Assembly (NCBI RefSeq): GCF_001462205.1
Contig: NZ_LKIR01000123.1
Location: 1 to 39,359, forward strand
From: Haloparvum sedimenti
GTDB taxonomy: Archaea; Halobacteriota; Halobacteria; Halobacteriales; Haloferacaceae
Direction of reading: 5' to 3'
Length of the DNA: 39,359 bases
The position numbers and the translations under genes were made by a program. Each line of letters starts with the position of its first letter. The stretch's first letter is position 1. Positions 2,405 through 14,499 of this stretch are shown here, piece after piece. The notes under the pieces were generated by a model. The model saw only the letters and a program-made list of their open reading frames with translations. It was not told the DNA's origin and ran no database searches.

Positions 2405-2566
2405 CCTTTGCCAACAACGGTTCGACCGGACGCCGGAAGGGCACGTGGGTAGGGGTACTCTGTGCCACTCCGGCCCATACAGTTACGATCGCCAGCGGCG
2501 GCGCCGTCCGTTGGCCCGGCGTGATTCTGAGATCGGCGACGTGGCCGGGACAGGGGGGACCGTCGC

Positions 2567-3265
2567 GTGAACTTCGACGAGTGGGAACCCGCCTACGAGG
2601 CCGTGCTCGCCGACTTCGGGTACGACCGGACGGCCGACGAGCGCGCCCGCGACGTTGCGGCGGGGCTGGCGACGCCGTTCGACCGCGGCCGGCTCGCGTT
2701 CCTGGAGGGGGCGACGGTCGCGGTCGCGGGCGCCGGGCCATCGCTGACCGCCCGGAGCGAGCTCGCCGCGGCGCGGGGCGCCGACGCCGTCGTCGCAGCC
2801 TCGACCGCCGCGGACGCGCTCCGGGAGGAAGGCGTGACCGTCGACCTGATGGTCACCGACCTCGACAAGAATCCCGAGACTGCACGCGCCCTGACGGCGG
2901 CCGGGACGCCAGTCGCGGCCCACGCCCACGGCGACAACGTCCCCGCGGTCCGCGAGTGGCTCCCGGCGTTCGAAGCCGCCGCGACGCTCGTGACGACGCA
3001 GGCCGAGCCGTGGGGACCGGTCGAGAACTTCGGCGGTTTCACCGACGGCGACCGCGCGGCGTTCCTCGCCGACCACTTCGGGGCCGCGGAGCTCCGGTTC
3101 GTCGGGTGGGACTTCGAGGACCCGGGCGTCGATGCGGCGAAGGCGCGGAAGCTCGAGTGGGCCGCTCGGCTCCTCGGCTGGCTGGAGCGCCGCCGCGGCG
3201 AGCGGTTCCCGGTGCTGAACGGGCGCCGCGAGGACCTGTCGTTCCCGTGGCTCGACGGGTCGTAG
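2567..3265 (+). CDS. mptE: 6-hydroxymethyl-7,8-dihydropterin pyrophosphokinase (MptE, DUF115)
   Basis: A 232-residue DUF115/MptE-family enzyme. MptE transfers pyrophosphate from ATP to 6-hydroxymethyl-dihydropterin, giving the activated pterin used in archaeal folate or methanopterin synthesis; it replaces bacterial FolK. Visible family blocks are VAVAGAGPSL (residues 51-60), MVTDLDKN (95-102), HAHGDN (119-124) and the late GWDFEDPG. The GTG start at 2567 is supported by a strong GGGGGG Shine-Dalgarno-like run about eight bases upstream. It follows the DHPS-like gene on the same strand and converges with the dihydrofolate reductase gene only 13 bases after its stop. These neighbours all point to folate metabolism. 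Confidence 0.88.
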   Translation: MNFDEWEPAYEAVLADFGYDRTADERARDVAAGLATPFDRGRLAFLEGATVAVAGAGPSLTARSELAAARGADAVVAASTAADALREEGVTVDLMVTDLDKNPETARALTAAGTPVAAHAHGDNVPAVREWLPAFEAAATLVTTQAEPWGPVENFGGFTDGDRAAFLADHFGAAELRFVGWDFEDPGVDAAKARKLEWAARLLGWLERRRGERFPVLNGRREDLSFPWLDGS

Positions 3266-3278
3266 GGGCCTTCTCGTC

Positions 3279-3857
3279 TTACTCGTCGGGGGGGTTCCCG
3301 GACTCGGCCCGGCGCTCGTAAACGACGAACGCGAGGTCCTCGCGCTCGTCGCGGGAAACTTCGGTCCACGCCTCGGGATCCCGCTCCGGGAACCGCGTGT
3401 CGCCCTCGTGAACGTTCTCGATCTCCGTGATCCGGAGTCGGTCCGCGACCGGGAGGAACTGCTCGTAGACGCGGGCGCCGCCGGCGACGAACACCTCGTC
3501 GACGCCGCGCTCGCGGGCGTCCGCCGCGGCGACGGAGAGCGCCTCGTCGAGACTCCCGGCCTGCACCGCGCCCTCGGGGAGGTCGAGGTCGCGCCGAGAG
3601 AGGACCACGTTCGTCCGATCCGGCAGCGGCCCGCCGATCTGGCCCGCGATGCTCTCGTAGGTCGTCCGGCCGAGGATCACGGGGTGGCCCGTCGTGGTCT
3701 CCTTGAAGTGCGCGAGGTCGGCCGGGTAGTGCCACGGCATCCCTCCGTCCGCGCCGATGACGCCGTTGTCCGCGACCGCGGCGATCAGCGTGAGCGTCAG
3801 GTCCGCAGGCGGCTCCGGCGGCGTGCTCGGGTCACCGCCCTCGTTCACCTCGCCCAT
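3279..3857 (-). CDS. hdrA: dihydrofolate reductase
   Basis: NADPH-dependent reduction of dihydrofolate to tetrahydrofolate, regenerating the cofactor oxidised by thymidylate synthase. The protein is 192 residues: an acidic, proline-rich tail of about 20, then the DHFR domain with LIAAVADNGVIG, MPWHYPADLAHFK (Asp47 is the catalytic acid, equivalent to Asp27 of E. coli DHFR), VILGRTTYESI and FVAGGARVYEQFL (cofactor loop). It starts four bases after the thymidylate synthase stop on the same strand, so the pair is almost certainly one operon, matching the known haloarchaeal hts-hdrA arrangement. The start at 3857 is the first ATG after the upstream stop; the extra N-terminal tail could be shorter in the real protein. 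Confidence 0.93.
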   Translation of the reverse strand: MGEVNEGGDPSTPPEPPADLTLTLIAAVADNGVIGADGGMPWHYPADLAHFKETTTGHPVILGRTTYESIAGQIGGPLPDRTNVVLSRRDLDLPEGAVQAGSLDEALSVAAADARERGVDEVFVAGGARVYEQFLPVADRLRITEIENVHEGDTRFPERDPEAWTEVSRDEREDLAFVVYERRAESGNPPDE

Positions 3858-3861
3858 GTCC

Positions 3862-4884
3862 TCACTCCGCGACCGCGAAGGAGAGCCCCTCCGCGGAGTC
3901 GTAGTCGACCAGTTCGACGTCGTCGTAGGTCAACTCGTCGAGCGGCTTGTCGGCGATCTCGATCCGGGGGCGCTCGCGGGGCTCGCGGGAGAGCTGTTCG
4001 AGCAGGCCGGGGACGTGGTCGTAGTTCTCCTCGCCCGCCGCCTCCGCGGGCGCCTCGTCCTCGAGCCACGCACGCACGCCGCGGTAGTCGGCCTTCTCCT
4101 CGACGCCCGCGAGGCGATCCTGCAGGCGGTCGAGGTTGTCGCCGTACCACGCGCCGCGGTCGCCGGTGCCGCAGTAGACGTGCGCGTCGACGATGGTGTG
4201 ACCGAATTCGCCGACCTCGAACGCCGTGCGCTGCGCGATGGCCTTCGCCAGGAGTGCGTAGGCGGCGATGTTGAACGGCACGCCGAGGGCAACGTCGCCG
4301 GAGCGCTGCGTGAGGTGGAGGTTGAGCTTGCCGCCCTGCACGTTGACGACGAACGTGTAGTGGCAGGGGGGGAGCGTCGAGACGGCCGCGTTCGCGGGGT
4401 GCCACGCGTTCACGACCATGCGCCGCGAGTGCGGGTTCTCCGCGAGGGTGTCGAGCACGTACTGTATCTGGTCGAACGTGCGGACCTGCTTCCCCTCCGC
4501 GTCCTCCTCGACGGTGACCCAGCGCTGGCTCTCGTCGGGCCACGTCTCGCCCTCCAGCCCGCCTTCAGGGACGGGGTAGCGGCGCCAGAAGCGGCCGTAG
4601 GCAGTATCGAGCCGCCCCTCCTCGTCGGCCCACGCATCCCAGATCTTCGTGTGCTCGCGGAGGTTCCGGACGTGTTCCTCGCCCGAGAGGTACCACAGCA
4701 CCTCGTGGATCAGCGAGTTCCAGCGGTAGCCGTCGAGCTTCTTGGTCGTCAGCAGGGGAAAGCCCTCCGAGAGGTCGATGGTGTAGCCGCCGTTGAACGT
4801 CGCGACGGTGTCGACCCCCGTGCGGTTCGGCTTGTACGTGCCCGTCGAGAGGGTCTCGTCGACGAGATCGAGGTACTGTTGCAT
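3862..4884 (-). CDS. thyA: thymidylate synthase
   Basis: Makes dTMP from dUMP using methylene-tetrahydrofolate. It is 340 residues, somewhat longer than the roughly 264 of E. coli ThyA because of an insertion after GRFWRRYPVP (about residues 106-135) and an acidic insertion near residues 245-275. Active-site features are Arg21 in KPNRTGV, nucleophile Cys174 in LPPCHYTF, QRSGDVALGVPFNIAAYA (dUMP binding) and the terminal block ending SFAVAE. It is transcribed together with the reductase downstream. The upstream 105 bases have no other gene; a TCTTTAGG sequence on the minus strand near 4950-4957 is the only TATA-like element seen. Confidence 0.96.
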   Translation of the reverse strand: MQQYLDLVDETLSTGTYKPNRTGVDTVATFNGGYTIDLSEGFPLLTTKKLDGYRWNSLIHEVLWYLSGEEHVRNLREHTKIWDAWADEEGRLDTAYGRFWRRYPVPEGGLEGETWPDESQRWVTVEEDAEGKQVRTFDQIQYVLDTLAENPHSRRMVVNAWHPANAAVSTLPPCHYTFVVNVQGGKLNLHLTQRSGDVALGVPFNIAAYALLAKAIAQRTAFEVGEFGHTIVDAHVYCGTGDRGAWYGDNLDRLQDRLAGVEEKADYRGVRAWLEDEAPAEAAGEENYDHVPGLLEQLSREPRERPRIEIADKPLDELTYDDVELVDYDSAEGLSFAVAE

Positions 4885-11319: not shown

Positions 11320-11796
11320 ATGGCTGGAACTATCGAAGTGCTCGTTCCCGGCGGGCAGGCCGACCCGGGCCCGCCGCTCGGTCCCGAGCTCGGCCCGACC
11401 CCCGTGGACGTGCAGGACGTCGTCAACCAGATCAACGAAGAGACCGCCGCGTTCGACGGGATGGAGGTTCCCGTCACCGTCGAGTACGACGACGACGGCT
11501 CCTTCAGCATCGAGGTCGGCGTCCCGCCGACCGCGGAGCTGATCAAGGACGAAGCCGGCTTCGACACCGGCTCCGGCGAGCCGCAGGAGGACTTCGTCGC
11601 CGACATGACCATCGAACAGGTCAAGAAGGTGGCCGAGCAGAAGTCCTCGGACCTGCTCTCGTACGACACGAAAAACGCCGCCAAGGAGGTCGGCGGCACC
11701 TGCGCCTCCCTCGGCGTCACCATCGAGGGCGAGGACGCCCGGACGTTCGACGACCGCGTCGACGCCGGCGACTACGACGACATCCTCGAAGCGTAA
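11320..11796 (+). CDS. rpl11: 50S ribosomal protein L11
   Basis: Large-subunit protein of the GTPase-associated centre that binds 23S rRNA and contacts elongation factors. It is 158 residues. The signature GGQADPGPPLGPELGPTPVDV (split here as residues 11-20 and on) and INEETAAFDGMEVPVTV in the N-terminal domain, then the RNA-binding C-terminal domain with DLLSYDTKNAAKEVGGTCASLGV, are typical of archaeal L11. A GGAG sequence lies four bases before the ATG. The usual neighbours L1, L10 and L12 are not adjacent; the 1.1 kb downstream is the noncoding repeat region. Confidence 0.96.
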   Translation: MAGTIEVLVPGGQADPGPPLGPELGPTPVDVQDVVNQINEETAAFDGMEVPVTVEYDDDGSFSIEVGVPPTAELIKDEAGFDTGSGEPQEDFVADMTIEQVKKVAEQKSSDLLSYDTKNAAKEVGGTCASLGVTIEGEDARTFDDRVDAGDYDDILEA

Positions 11797-11898: not shown

Positions 11899-11913
11899 GC
11901 GATACTGGGTATA
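11899..11913 (+). repeat. left terminal inverted repeat
   Basis: GCGATACTGGGTATA, 102 bases after the rpl11 stop. It pairs perfectly with 12878-12892. The ACTGGGTATAA portion also looks like a TATA box, so a promoter role at one end is an alternative. Confidence 0.65.
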
Positions 11914-11949
11914 ACGGGGTGATCAAGAAGTGTCTGTTTTTTGTCTTAT

Positions 11950-12080
11950 AAAGCGTCCTGCTGCGCTTGTTGCCAACGCTTAGAAAGCCCTCGACCGCTC
12001 GCTTTACGCTGGTTTTTGTGTCAGAAAGCGTCCTGCTGCGATTGTCGCCAACAGCCAGAAAGCCCTCGACCGCTCGCGGA
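11950..12080. repeat. two tandem units of a 75-bp repeat with conserved 49-bp core
   Basis: Cores at 11952-12000 and 12027-12075 agree at about 43 of 49 bases, with a period of exactly 75 bases. Because 75 is a multiple of three, the minus strand reads through both as similar peptide-like strings (VEGFL-VGNKRSRTL), but the composition is not haloarchaeal protein. Each core runs from AGCGTCCTGCTGCG to CCCTCGACCGCTC. A third, diverged copy lies at 5427-5475. Confidence 0.75.
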
Positions 12081-12164
12081 CGCTCAGCGACATATCGGCG
12101 CCTCTCCGCAACGCCCGGCGCCGATAGGGGTCGTCTGAGCGCCCGCGACCGGCCTCGCCCTTTC
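12058..12164. repeat. long imperfect hairpin element with GAAAG/CTTTC ends
   Basis: The left arm begins GAAAGCCCTCGACCG (12058) and continues through CGCGGACGCTCAG. The right arm, CTGAGCGCCCGCG (12135-12147) to CCCTTTC (12164), pairs with it at about 22 of 30 positions. At the centre TATCGGCGCC (12093-12102) pairs perfectly with GGCGCCGATA (12117-12126) over a 14-base loop. Compensating differences in the arms suggest either selection on structure or a folded repeat. Confidence 0.6.
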
Positions 12165-12629
12165 AATCCGCCAGGAGGTGGTTTGTGTAGTCGGCCGTCG
12201 CAGCCGGTAGCTCGGTGGGTCTCTGTTCTGGCTGTCGAGGTGAGCGTAGCCTCACGCCTCCCCAACCTCAGCCGCCCTCGGCCTTCGCGTCGCTTCGGCC
12301 GCGCGCGGGCTTCCCTCGCGCGCGTTTCTCGCGCGGCGGGCGAGAGACAAGCTCTCGCTGCTCGCAGGCGTGCAGTAGCGCGCCTGCGACGCCGGGCGTT
12401 CGACAGCCGGCGAGCCGATGCGCCGTGTCCGGCGCGATACGGCTGCACTCACGGCGGGAGTCCCGCAGTATCTGCGATAAATGTTCGTCCGGCGACGGTG
12501 CGGTGCGGTTGGCGCGCGCCGCGGCGACCCTGTGTCGCCGCGACCGCGCGAGGGAGGCGGCGGCGCGGCCGCATGCGGTGCGGTCGCGCGGCCGCGCCGC
12601 CGCCGAGGCTGGGGAGGGACGAGGCTGCT

Positions 12630-12671
12630 GGGCGGTTGCGGTGCTGTGCGGGGCGGTTGCGGTGCTGGGCG
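12630..12671 (+). repeat. 21-bp tandem repeat, two copies
   Basis: GGGCGGTTGCGGTGCTG plus four bases is repeated at 12630-12650 and 12651-12671, differing at one base, followed by a degraded partial copy. It lies inside the 994-bp segment just before the second hairpin element. Confidence 0.6.
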
Positions 12672-12683
12672 GTGGGTGGGGCT

Positions 12684-12794
12684 GAAAGGGGCAGCCGGCT
12701 CGATCCCGCCCGGACGACGCAAGCACCGCAGCGGGCTGTGCGGAGAGCGAGGAGCGCAGCGAGGCCCGGCGGGTCGAGCCGGCTGGGGCTTTCT
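12684..12794. repeat. second long hairpin element with GAAAG/CTTTC ends
   Basis: GAAAGGGGCAGCCGGCTCGA at the left pairs with TCGAGCCGGCTGGGGCTTTC at the right. The 12-bp core CAGCCGGCTCGA (12692-12703) and TCGAGCCGGCTG (12774-12785) is perfect, and the stem extends inward through CCCGCC/GGCGGG with slips. It resembles the element at 12058-12164 in size and in its GAAAG...CTTTC boundaries, though the arm sequences differ. Confidence 0.6.
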
Positions 12795-12877
12795 GGACGG
12801 TGTTGTCCAGATCAGCAGGATCGATCGCAGTCACAAAAACACCCCTAAATAACAGAAAGGCAACATACGCGTGTCGA

Positions 12878-12892
12878 TATACCCAGTATCGC
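12878..12892 (-). repeat. right terminal inverted repeat
   Basis: TATACCCAGTATCGC is the exact reverse complement of 11899-11913. It lies 53 bases beyond the stop of the phosphoglycerate mutase gene. Confidence 0.65.
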
Positions 12893-12945: not shown

Positions 12946-14499
12946 CTACTCCAGCAGGCTCTCGCCGGTCATGGCGGCCGGCTGTTCGACGCCCATCAGC
13001 TCCAAAAGCGTCGGCGCCACGTCGCACAGGGAGCCGCCGTCGTGGACCGCGTGGCCGCCGCCGTCGCCGTCGGGCGTGAGGTAGACGAACGGGACCGGGT
13101 TGAACGTGTGCGCGGTGTGCGGCTCCTCCTCCGTACCCATGTCGTCGGCGTTACCGTGGTCGGCGGTGACGACCGCGTGCCCGCCCGCGTCCGCGACCGC
13201 GTCGAGCAGCCGCCCGAGCTGTACGTCGACCGCCTCGACGGCCTCGACCGCGGCGTCGAAGTCGCCGGTGTGGCCGACCATGTCGGGGTTCGCGTAGTTG
13301 AGGACCAGGAGCTCGGGGTCCTCCCGCTCGATGAACCCGACCGCCTCGTCGGTCAGCTCCGCGGCGGACATCTCCGGTTGCAGGTCGTAGGTCGGCACGT
13401 CCGGGCTGTCGACGATGATCCGCTCCTCGCCGTCGAAGGCCACCTCGCGGCCGCCGTTGAGGAAGTAGGTGACGTGCGGGTACTTCTCCGACTCCGCGAT
13501 GCGGAGCTGCTCGAAGCCCGCGTCCGCGGTCACCTCCCCGAGCGTGTCTTCGGGGATGGTGGGCGGGAACGCGACCGGGAACTCGTAGGTCTCGTCGTAC
13601 TCCGTGAGCGTGACGAGTTCGATGGCGGGCTGGTCGAGGTCGTACTCCCACGTCGGCACGGTGCCGGTGAGCATCCGGACCAGCTGGCGAGCGCGGTCCG
13701 CGCGGAAGTTGAAGAAGACGACCGCGTCGCCGTCCGAGAGGGCCGGCCCCCCCGCGACCAGCGTCGGCTCGACGAACTCGTCGGTCTCGCCGCGGGCGTG
13801 CGCCTCCTCGACCGCCCCGGTCCCGGAGGCGGCCTCGTGGGGCGCCTCGCGGTTCACGATGGCGTCGTAGGCGCGCTTCGTGCGCTCCCAGTTCTCGTCG
13901 CGGTCCATCGCGAAGTAGCGCCCCGTCACGGTCGCCACCTCGCCCGTGCCGGCCGTCTCGGCGTGGGCCGTCACCTCGGCGAGGAACTCGTCGCCGATCT
14001 CGGGCGCGGTGTCGCGGCCGTCCGTGAACGCGTGTGTCGTCGCCGGCACGCCGTGGGCAGCCGCGCCGTCGATCAGCGCCTTCAGGTGGGCGATGTCGGA
14101 GTGGACCCCGCCGTCGGAGACGAGCCCCATGAAGTGGACACGGCCGCCCGTCTCGGCGACGTGCGAGAAGGCCGACTCGATGGCCTCGTTCTCCGCGAAG
14201 GTACCGTCCGCGATGACGTCGGAGATCCGGGTGTACGCCTGCTTGACGACTCGTCCTGCGCCGATGTTGAGGTGGCCGACCTCCGAGTTGCCCATCTGTG
14301 CGTCCGGGAGACCGACGCGCCGGCCGTGGACCTCCAACCGACCGGACGCTCCGCGGCTCGCGGCGTCGTCGAAGGTGGGCGTGTCCGCGGCCGCCACCGC
14401 GTCGCGACCGGCGTCGCGGTTCGGGTCGGGAGCCGGGTGGTCGCCGTCGCTCCCGGCGCCGAGACCCCAGCCGTCGAGGATCACGAGGGCTGCGTGCAT
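12946..14499 (-). CDS. gpmI: 2,3-bisphosphoglycerate-independent phosphoglycerate mutase
   Basis: Interconverts 3- and 2-phosphoglycerate in glycolysis and gluconeogenesis using two Mn ions. At 517 residues it matches the family. N-terminal ALVILDGWG (Asp9, metal), GNSEVGHLNIGAGR with nucleophile Ser72, FMGLVSDGGVHS, HAFTDGRDT, VTGRYFAMDRD, FFNFRADRARQL, LLVLNYANPDMVGHTG and VVTADHGNADDM are all present. An insertion of about 12 residues rich in Asp and Pro (residues 14-30) separates the first two blocks. The stop faces the 994-bp repeat segment. The start at 14499 gives the family's normal N-terminus. Confidence 0.96.
   Translation of the reverse strand: MHAALVILDGWGLGAGSDGDHPAPDPNRDAGRDAVAAADTPTFDDAASRGASGRLEVHGRRVGLPDAQMGNSEVGHLNIGAGRVVKQAYTRISDVIADGTFAENEAIESAFSHVAETGGRVHFMGLVSDGGVHSDIAHLKALIDGAAAHGVPATTHAFTDGRDTAPEIGDEFLAEVTAHAETAGTGEVATVTGRYFAMDRDENWERTKRAYDAIVNREAPHEAASGTGAVEEAHARGETDEFVEPTLVAGGPALSDGDAVVFFNFRADRARQLVRMLTGTVPTWEYDLDQPAIELVTLTEYDETYEFPVAFPPTIPEDTLGEVTADAGFEQLRIAESEKYPHVTYFLNGGREVAFDGEERIIVDSPDVPTYDLQPEMSAAELTDEAVGFIEREDPELLVLNYANPDMVGHTGDFDAAVEAVEAVDVQLGRLLDAVADAGGHAVVTADHGNADDMGTEEEPHTAHTFNPVPFVYLTPDGDGGGHAVHDGGSLCDVAPTLLELMGVEQPAAMTGESLLE

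What the first reader, a model, noticed from the sequence alone, without database searches (positions are those of the whole stretch)
11899..12892. 994-bp noncoding segment with perfect 15-bp inverted ends and internal hairpins
The sequence shows exact inverted repeats at both ends of an almost 1-kb region that lacks any gene-like reading frame, and inside it tandem 75-bp units, two long imperfect hairpins and a 21-bp tandem repeat. No transposase and no clear target duplication are visible. This would fit a large non-autonomous element, or a structured RNA locus. I recall related-looking GC-rich intergenic sequence in Halorubrum-type genomes, unchecked, so the family may be widespread yet undescribed as a unit.
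Basis: partly seen in the sequence, partly recalled or inferred. Interest (0 to 1): 0.75.

Follow-up and report, generated by a model that had tools for sequence, protein, structure and literature searches.

The report
Haloarchaeal mobile DNA hairpin repeat element
The 1-kb gene-free stretch is one of about 90 scattered copies, in this salt-loving archaeon, of a non-coding hairpin element found across most haloarchaea, whose stems keep changing sequence in matched pairs; no described family that we could find contains it, and what copies it is unknown.

Summary
In detail: 11899-12892 lies between the convergent genes rpl11 and gpmI, is non-coding, and carries the perfect 15-bp ends, 75-bp and 21-bp tandem repeats and hairpins. 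It is not a lone structure. It is an inverted dimer of a repeat unit present about 90 times in this genome (assembly size identical to Haloparvum sedimenti DYS4). At least 14 copies (453-1152 bp) are bounded by CGATACT[GT][AG]GT inverted ends without target duplication or transposase and with a strong symmetric flank preference. Those ends occur only in this genome among 117 sampled.

The core is far wider: a hairpin GAAAGCCCC-stem-loop-stem-GGCCCCTTTCAGTCCCACCC in 83 of 117 genomes and 37 of 49 genera of the order, often as tail-to-tail inverted pairs 13-25 bp apart. Its stems covary strongly, also at one orthologous site. G-T and A-C intermediates are equally rare, so constraint looks DNA-level rather than that of one RNA strand. 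It is not linked to IS605/Y1 transposases and is absent from Rfam.

Best reading: REPIN/BIME-like non-autonomous mobile DNA, packaged between inverted ends in Haloparvum. The mobiliser is unidentified; mobility is inferred from dispersal and patchy presence, not shown.

The parts
11899..12892 (.). whole element: inverted dimer of unit U (U1 forward, U2 reverse, heads outward) between inverted ends
11899..11913 (+). left inverted end, head type b (GCGATACTGGGTATA)
12878..12892 (-). right inverted end, head type b
11934..12077 (+). two 75-bp head repeats of U1 (each repeats about 55 nt of upstream sequence plus the 5' arm of the hairpin); copy number varies 1-5 between loci
12056..12175 (+). U1 copy of the conserved GAAAG...CTTTC hairpin (divergent stem)
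12245..12400 (+). U1 modules B/C: CCTCCCC(A)ACCTC box, GC-rich stems and the GTGCAGTAGC stem-loop
12443..12462 (-). tail box GACTCCCGCCGTGAGTGCAG of U2, also at the tails of several other copies; here near the junction of the two units
12500..12615 (-). U2 stem C and stem B (CCTCCCCAGCCTC - stem B - TCCCTCGCGCG - stem C - GCGCGCC), covarying among copies
12626..12667 (-). 21-bp tandem repeat: CCGCACAGCACCGCAACCGC-type linker between stem A and stem B
12673..12795 (-). U2 copy of the order-wide hairpin (stem A), R1 138.5 bits
12796..12877 (-). U2 head region (single head, GATCCTGCTGATCTGGACAACACCGTC)

Best explanation
A copy of a non-autonomous, REPIN/BIME-like mobile DNA repeat of haloarchaea. 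Shown: a conserved long hairpin (GAAAGCCCC-stem-conserved loop-stem-GGCCCCTTTCAGTCCCACCC) is dispersed in intergenic DNA across the order, singly or as tail-to-tail inverted pairs; its stem pairing is kept by paired changes; in Haloparvum it sits, with extra stems B and C and 75-bp head repeats, between CGATACT[GT][AG]GT inverted ends; bounded copies lack target duplications and prefer flanks CTRTCGnTCR; the window copy is an inverted dimer of two diverged units. Inferred: copies spread when an enzyme supplied in trans recognises the ends and/or the extruded single-stranded or cruciform hairpins and inserts the element without a staggered-cut duplication, tolerated mainly between genes and less often upstream of two divergent genes. 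Which enzyme does this was not found.
For: About 90 hairpin copies in this genome; 14 complete inverted-end elements of 453-1152 bp; flank information 7.8 bits against a null maximum of 2.2; no TSD at any offset. Hairpin in 83/117 genomes, 37/49 genera, with very uneven copy number within genera. Inverted pairs 13-25 bp apart at 17 of 86 loci searched (sequences). Covariation: 26 sequences, score 0.468 against 0.129 shuffled and at most 0.09 slid; 112 sequences, 0.560 against 0.133 and at most 0.09. G-T 23 against A-C 20 cells, so no strand bias. Presence/absence at rpl11 and at gatE among congeners. Own copies: 17 convergent, 19 tandem, 5 divergent gaps.
Against: No mobiliser identified. No clean empty site was obtained for a Haloparvum inverted-end copy (no second Haloparvum genome held). 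Some sites are occupied in several species (gatE in four congeners; L316/L318), so many copies are old and inherited. Symmetric G-T and A-C counts are also compatible with RNA from both strands or a palindrome-correcting mutation process.
Confidence: 0.68

Rival explanations
1. A family of structured non-coding RNA genes: the hairpin acts as RNA (sRNA or mRNA-leader element), and copies are gene duplicates kept for function.
For: Very strong covariation with conserved loop and tail boxes; compensatory turnover at one orthologous site; TTATAA-like box about 30-40 nt upstream of copies in one genus.
Against: G-T intermediates are no commoner than A-C (23 against 20), whereas selection on one RNA strand favours G-U; copy number ranges from 0 to at least 31 within families; no Rfam family; often inverted pairs.
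Confidence: 0.18
2. A host-maintained DNA site, such as a bidirectional terminator or a binding site for a chromosome-organising protein, spread for function rather than as a selfish element.
For: Convergent gaps exceed divergent ones (17 against 5 own, 19 against 12 elsewhere); pairing maintained long after insertion at gatE.
Against: Tandem gaps are the commonest; 34 of 117 genomes have none detected; no T-run after the hairpin as archaeal terminators need (sequences; general knowledge).
Confidence: 0.1
3. A degenerate IS200/IS605 derivative (PATE) whose hairpin is the subterminal palindrome recognised by a Y1 transposase.
For: No target duplication; palindromes; PATEs are common in haloarchaea (PMC3119063).
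Against: Among 38 Y1/TnpB loci only one lies beside a copy, where an IS605 sits next to it; genomes with no Y1_Tnp hit have at least 31 copies (G013, G072, G015) while one with 10 hits has 2; inverted ends are present, which PATEs lack.
Confidence: 0.04

Closest known systems
REPINs / BIMEs (inverted doublets of REP palindromes, bacteria; PMC3116915)
   Same: Extragenic, multi-copy, inverted pairs of hairpins with compensatory stem changes, clover-like fold possible, non-autonomous.
   Different: Hairpins over 100 nt with conserved loop instead of 20-40 bp; no GTAG/CGTC tag; no linked RAYT transposase; archaeal.
Small mobile repeats (SMRs) of Haloquadratum (PMC3119063)
   Same: Inverted ends, no target duplication, no transposase, ends not matched to a transposon, mobiliser unknown.
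   Different: SMRs are 80-110 bp and target IS605/PATE palindromes; these are 453-1152 bp in ordinary intergenic DNA and carry the order-wide hairpin.
MITEs
   Same: Short non-coding elements with inverted ends, many copies.
   Different: No parent transposon with the same ends found and no target duplication.
PATEs / IS605-derived elements
   Same: Haloarchaeal, palindromes, no target duplication.
   Different: No IS605 linkage; inverted ends present.

Membership tests
MITE | terminal inverted repeats, short, non-coding, multi-copy | tested here: met
   14 bounded copies, 453-1152 bp
MITE | ends shared with an autonomous transposon | tested here: inconclusive
   none of 9 DDE_Tnp_1 loci in the genome carries an inverted pair of the ends; draft assembly of 143 contigs and other transposase classes not searched
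MITE | target-site duplication | tested here: not met
   (some transposase families make none)
SMR (Haloquadratum) | inverted ends, no target duplication, too short for a transposase | tested here: met
SMR (Haloquadratum) | length about 80-110 bp | tested here: not met
   453-1152 bp
SMR (Haloquadratum) | SMR-A preference for inserting into IS605/PATE palindromes | tested here: inconclusive
   flanks show a CTRTCGnTCR consensus, but left and right flanks of one copy are not more complementary than those of different copies
PATE / IS605 | no terminal inverted repeats; palindromes related to IS605 ends | tested here: not met
REPIN/BIME | extragenic inverted pairs of palindromes with compensatory changes | tested here: met
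REPIN/BIME | 20-40 bp REP with GTAG (or CGTC) tag | tested here: not met
   hairpin about 105-147 nt, bounded by GAAAG/CTTTC boxes
REPIN/BIME | linked RAYT/Y1 transposase | tested here: not met
structured ncRNA | covarying secondary structure | tested here: met
structured ncRNA | excess of G-U over A-C on one strand | tested here: not met
   23 against 20 cells
structured ncRNA | transcription | not testable with these tools
   no RNA-seq available

The most novel reading that the evidence does not exclude
A previously unrecognised, haloarchaea-wide class of long DNA hairpin element whose base pairing is actively kept for long times after insertion, either by a dedicated hairpin-dependent copying machinery not yet known or by a palindrome-correcting process, independent of Y1/IS605 transposases.
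Probability: 0.35. Interest if true: 0.82.

Novelty: new variant of a known kind. Interest (0 to 1): 0.62.

Why it matters
Haloarchaeal intergenic DNA is largely unannotated. A hairpin family that reaches at least 31 copies in many genomes and about 90 in this one, absent from Rfam and, as far as the open literature searched shows, undescribed, gives a concrete target for annotation, a new case for comparing archaeal repeats with bacterial REPINs, and a pointer to an unknown mobilising enzyme. Covariation without wobble bias makes the DNA-or-RNA question directly testable.

Tried and rejected
Chance or low-complexity GC-rich DNA: rejected by exact end counts against reversed controls and covariation controls. 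Coding region: no plausible acidic, conserved ORF. IS605 terminal palindrome: 38 Y1/TnpB loci scanned, one adjacency explained by an IS605 next to a copy. An autonomous transposon with the same ends: none found among DDE_Tnp_1 loci, and unpaired ends are copies broken by assembly gaps. Target duplication: none at offsets -14 to +30. Insertion into individually perfect palindromes: not supported. Link to the OB-fold 'DNA-binding protein' gene downstream in five plasmids: treated as a shared plasmid region because most copies elsewhere lack it. Syntenic rpl11-gpmI empty sites: gpmI is elsewhere in relatives. Phage records: no match. Literature search with the box sequence: no paper.

Full report
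What is in the window. The stretch 11899-12892 lies between the 3' ends of rpl11 (11320-11796 +) and gpmI (12946-14499 -). The inverted pair is the only perfect 15-mer of its kind at 200-1500 bp spacing in the window.

Copies in the same genome. A DNA search found some 40 other loci at 69-87% identity, and a covariance model of the main hairpin found 90 matches at E up to 0.001. Comparing 39 loci showed that the window element is two diverged copies of one unit U, placed head-outward in inverted orientation; most loci hold a single U, and about a dozen hold the inverted dimer. U consists of one to five 75-nt head repeats, stem A (GAAAGCCCC...GGCCCCTTTCAGTCCCACC), a CCGCACAGCACCGCAACCGC linker, a CCTCCCCAGCCTC box, stem B, TCCCTCGCGCG, stem C and a variable tail. 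The arms of stems A and B change in matched pairs between copies.

The inverted ends. GCGATACTGRGT has 51 matches at up to one mismatch against 10 for the reversed control, and 18 against 0 exact. Fourteen elements of 453-1152 bp have both ends; the other ends abut assembly gaps or contig ends. Ordinary copies have a tail end (CGATACTGAGTGATGCAGACCGATTCAGA) and a different head end; the window copy has the same head end twice, which is why its 15-bp match is perfect. No bounded copy contains a transposase and none shows a target duplication. The ten bases outside the ends share a consensus CTRTCGnTCR on both sides (7.8 bits, null maximum 2.2 in 2000 draws). The two flanks of one copy are not more complementary than flanks of different copies, so each end has its own preference. 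The tail end was found in no other genome among 117 of the order.

The order-wide core. A search of 40 relatives matched only the stem-A module. Reading these copies showed a fixed frame with fully variable stems: GAAAGCCCC, stem, CTCGCTGCGCTCCTCG ... TGCGGTGCTTGCGTCG, stem, GGCCCCTTTCAGTCCCACCC. It is present on chromosomes and plasmids of Haloferacaceae, Natrialbaceae, Halobacteriaceae, Haloarculaceae and Haladaptataceae. At 17 of 86 loci searched the hairpins form inverted pairs, 3' ends facing, 13-25 bp apart, often with a small central palindrome and complementary outer flanks, so that the pair could fold as a clover.

Covariation and strand. On 26 sequences 93.6% of cells pair, 24 of 32 pairs have two-sided changes and the score is 0.468 against 0.129 shuffled and at most 0.09 when slid; on 112 sequences the score is 0.560 against 0.133. 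These two alignments were fitted to the model and lean towards it, but the sequence-only alignments and an orthologous set agree. At the gatE 5' gap four congeneric species carry the hairpin at the same place, with compensatory changes at five pair positions; a fifth congener and other genera lack it there. In the well-aligned variable stem, G-T pairs (23) are no more frequent than A-C mismatches (20) among 1774 cells. Selection on an RNA read from one strand should favour G-U, so the constraint looks like DNA (either strand, or a cruciform), or a copying process that restores palindromes. This is an inference; RNA from both strands would look similar.

Mobility. Support: dispersal, very uneven copy number, shared inverted ends with a flank consensus, and presence/absence between congeners at rpl11 (L095 filled; L092 and L094 lack it) and at gatE. 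Against recent activity in general: some sites are shared by several species. Own copies avoid divergent gaps (17 convergent, 19 tandem, 5 divergent; gene calls by a simple acidic-ORF rule), as expected if insertions into promoter regions are removed.

Mobiliser. IS200/IS605 enzymes were tested: 38 Y1 or TnpB loci gave one adjacency, where an IS605 lies next to a copy, and Y1 hits do not track copy number (G013, G072 and G015 have none with at least 31 copies; G005 has 10 and 2 copies). None of nine DDE_Tnp_1 loci has the ends. The mobiliser therefore remains unknown.

Comparison. In architecture it works like bacterial REPINs (PMC3116915) but fails their size, tag and RAYT criteria. In its ends it resembles the SMRs of Haloquadratum, which also lack target duplications and a known mobiliser (PMC3119063), but it is four to ten times longer. 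It matches no Rfam 15 family. No open-access paper in the library holds its box sequence, and a 2025 survey of REPs in bacteria and archaea does not mention haloarchaea (PMC12306157). Subscription papers were not searched, so 'undescribed' is provisional.

Noticed in passing
L083-L087, about 2500-4050: Five plasmids from five genera carry the hairpin about 500 nt upstream of a conserved ~290-aa OB-fold 'DNA-binding protein' gene; the intervening leader is itself highly conserved and rich in palindromes.
   Followed up: partly
L250:2230-2600 (genome C103:87489): An IS605 tnpA-tnpB element ends directly beside a U copy whose stem A has lost its loop (GAAAGCCCCAGCCGACTGCCCCTTTC).
   Followed up: partly
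L027, L045, L047, L057, L009: Loops of stems A or B hold inserted extra stem-loops, some shared between copies (GAAAATCGGAGATTTTC, CCAGCGTGCAGTAGCGCGCTGG), as if loops accept cassettes.
   Followed up: no
L318, L319, L328, L329, L331 (one relative genus): Head repeats also exist in this genus and carry a TTATAA-like box 30-40 nt before AACACCTC, a possible promoter.
   Followed up: no
window 12673-12695 and all stem-A copies: On the reverse strand the tail box reads GTGGGACTGAAAG, similar to the GTGGGATTGAAGC end of haloarchaeal CRISPR repeats (recalled from memory, may be chance).
   Followed up: no
contigs C58, C87, C103, C112, C133 ends: Several contigs of the assembly end in or near copies of this element, and many N gaps fall inside copies, so copy number is underestimated.
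   Followed up: partly
L138:6912-7036: Halorubrum sodomense has a hairpin copy about 1.4 kb beyond its gpmI gene.
   Followed up: no
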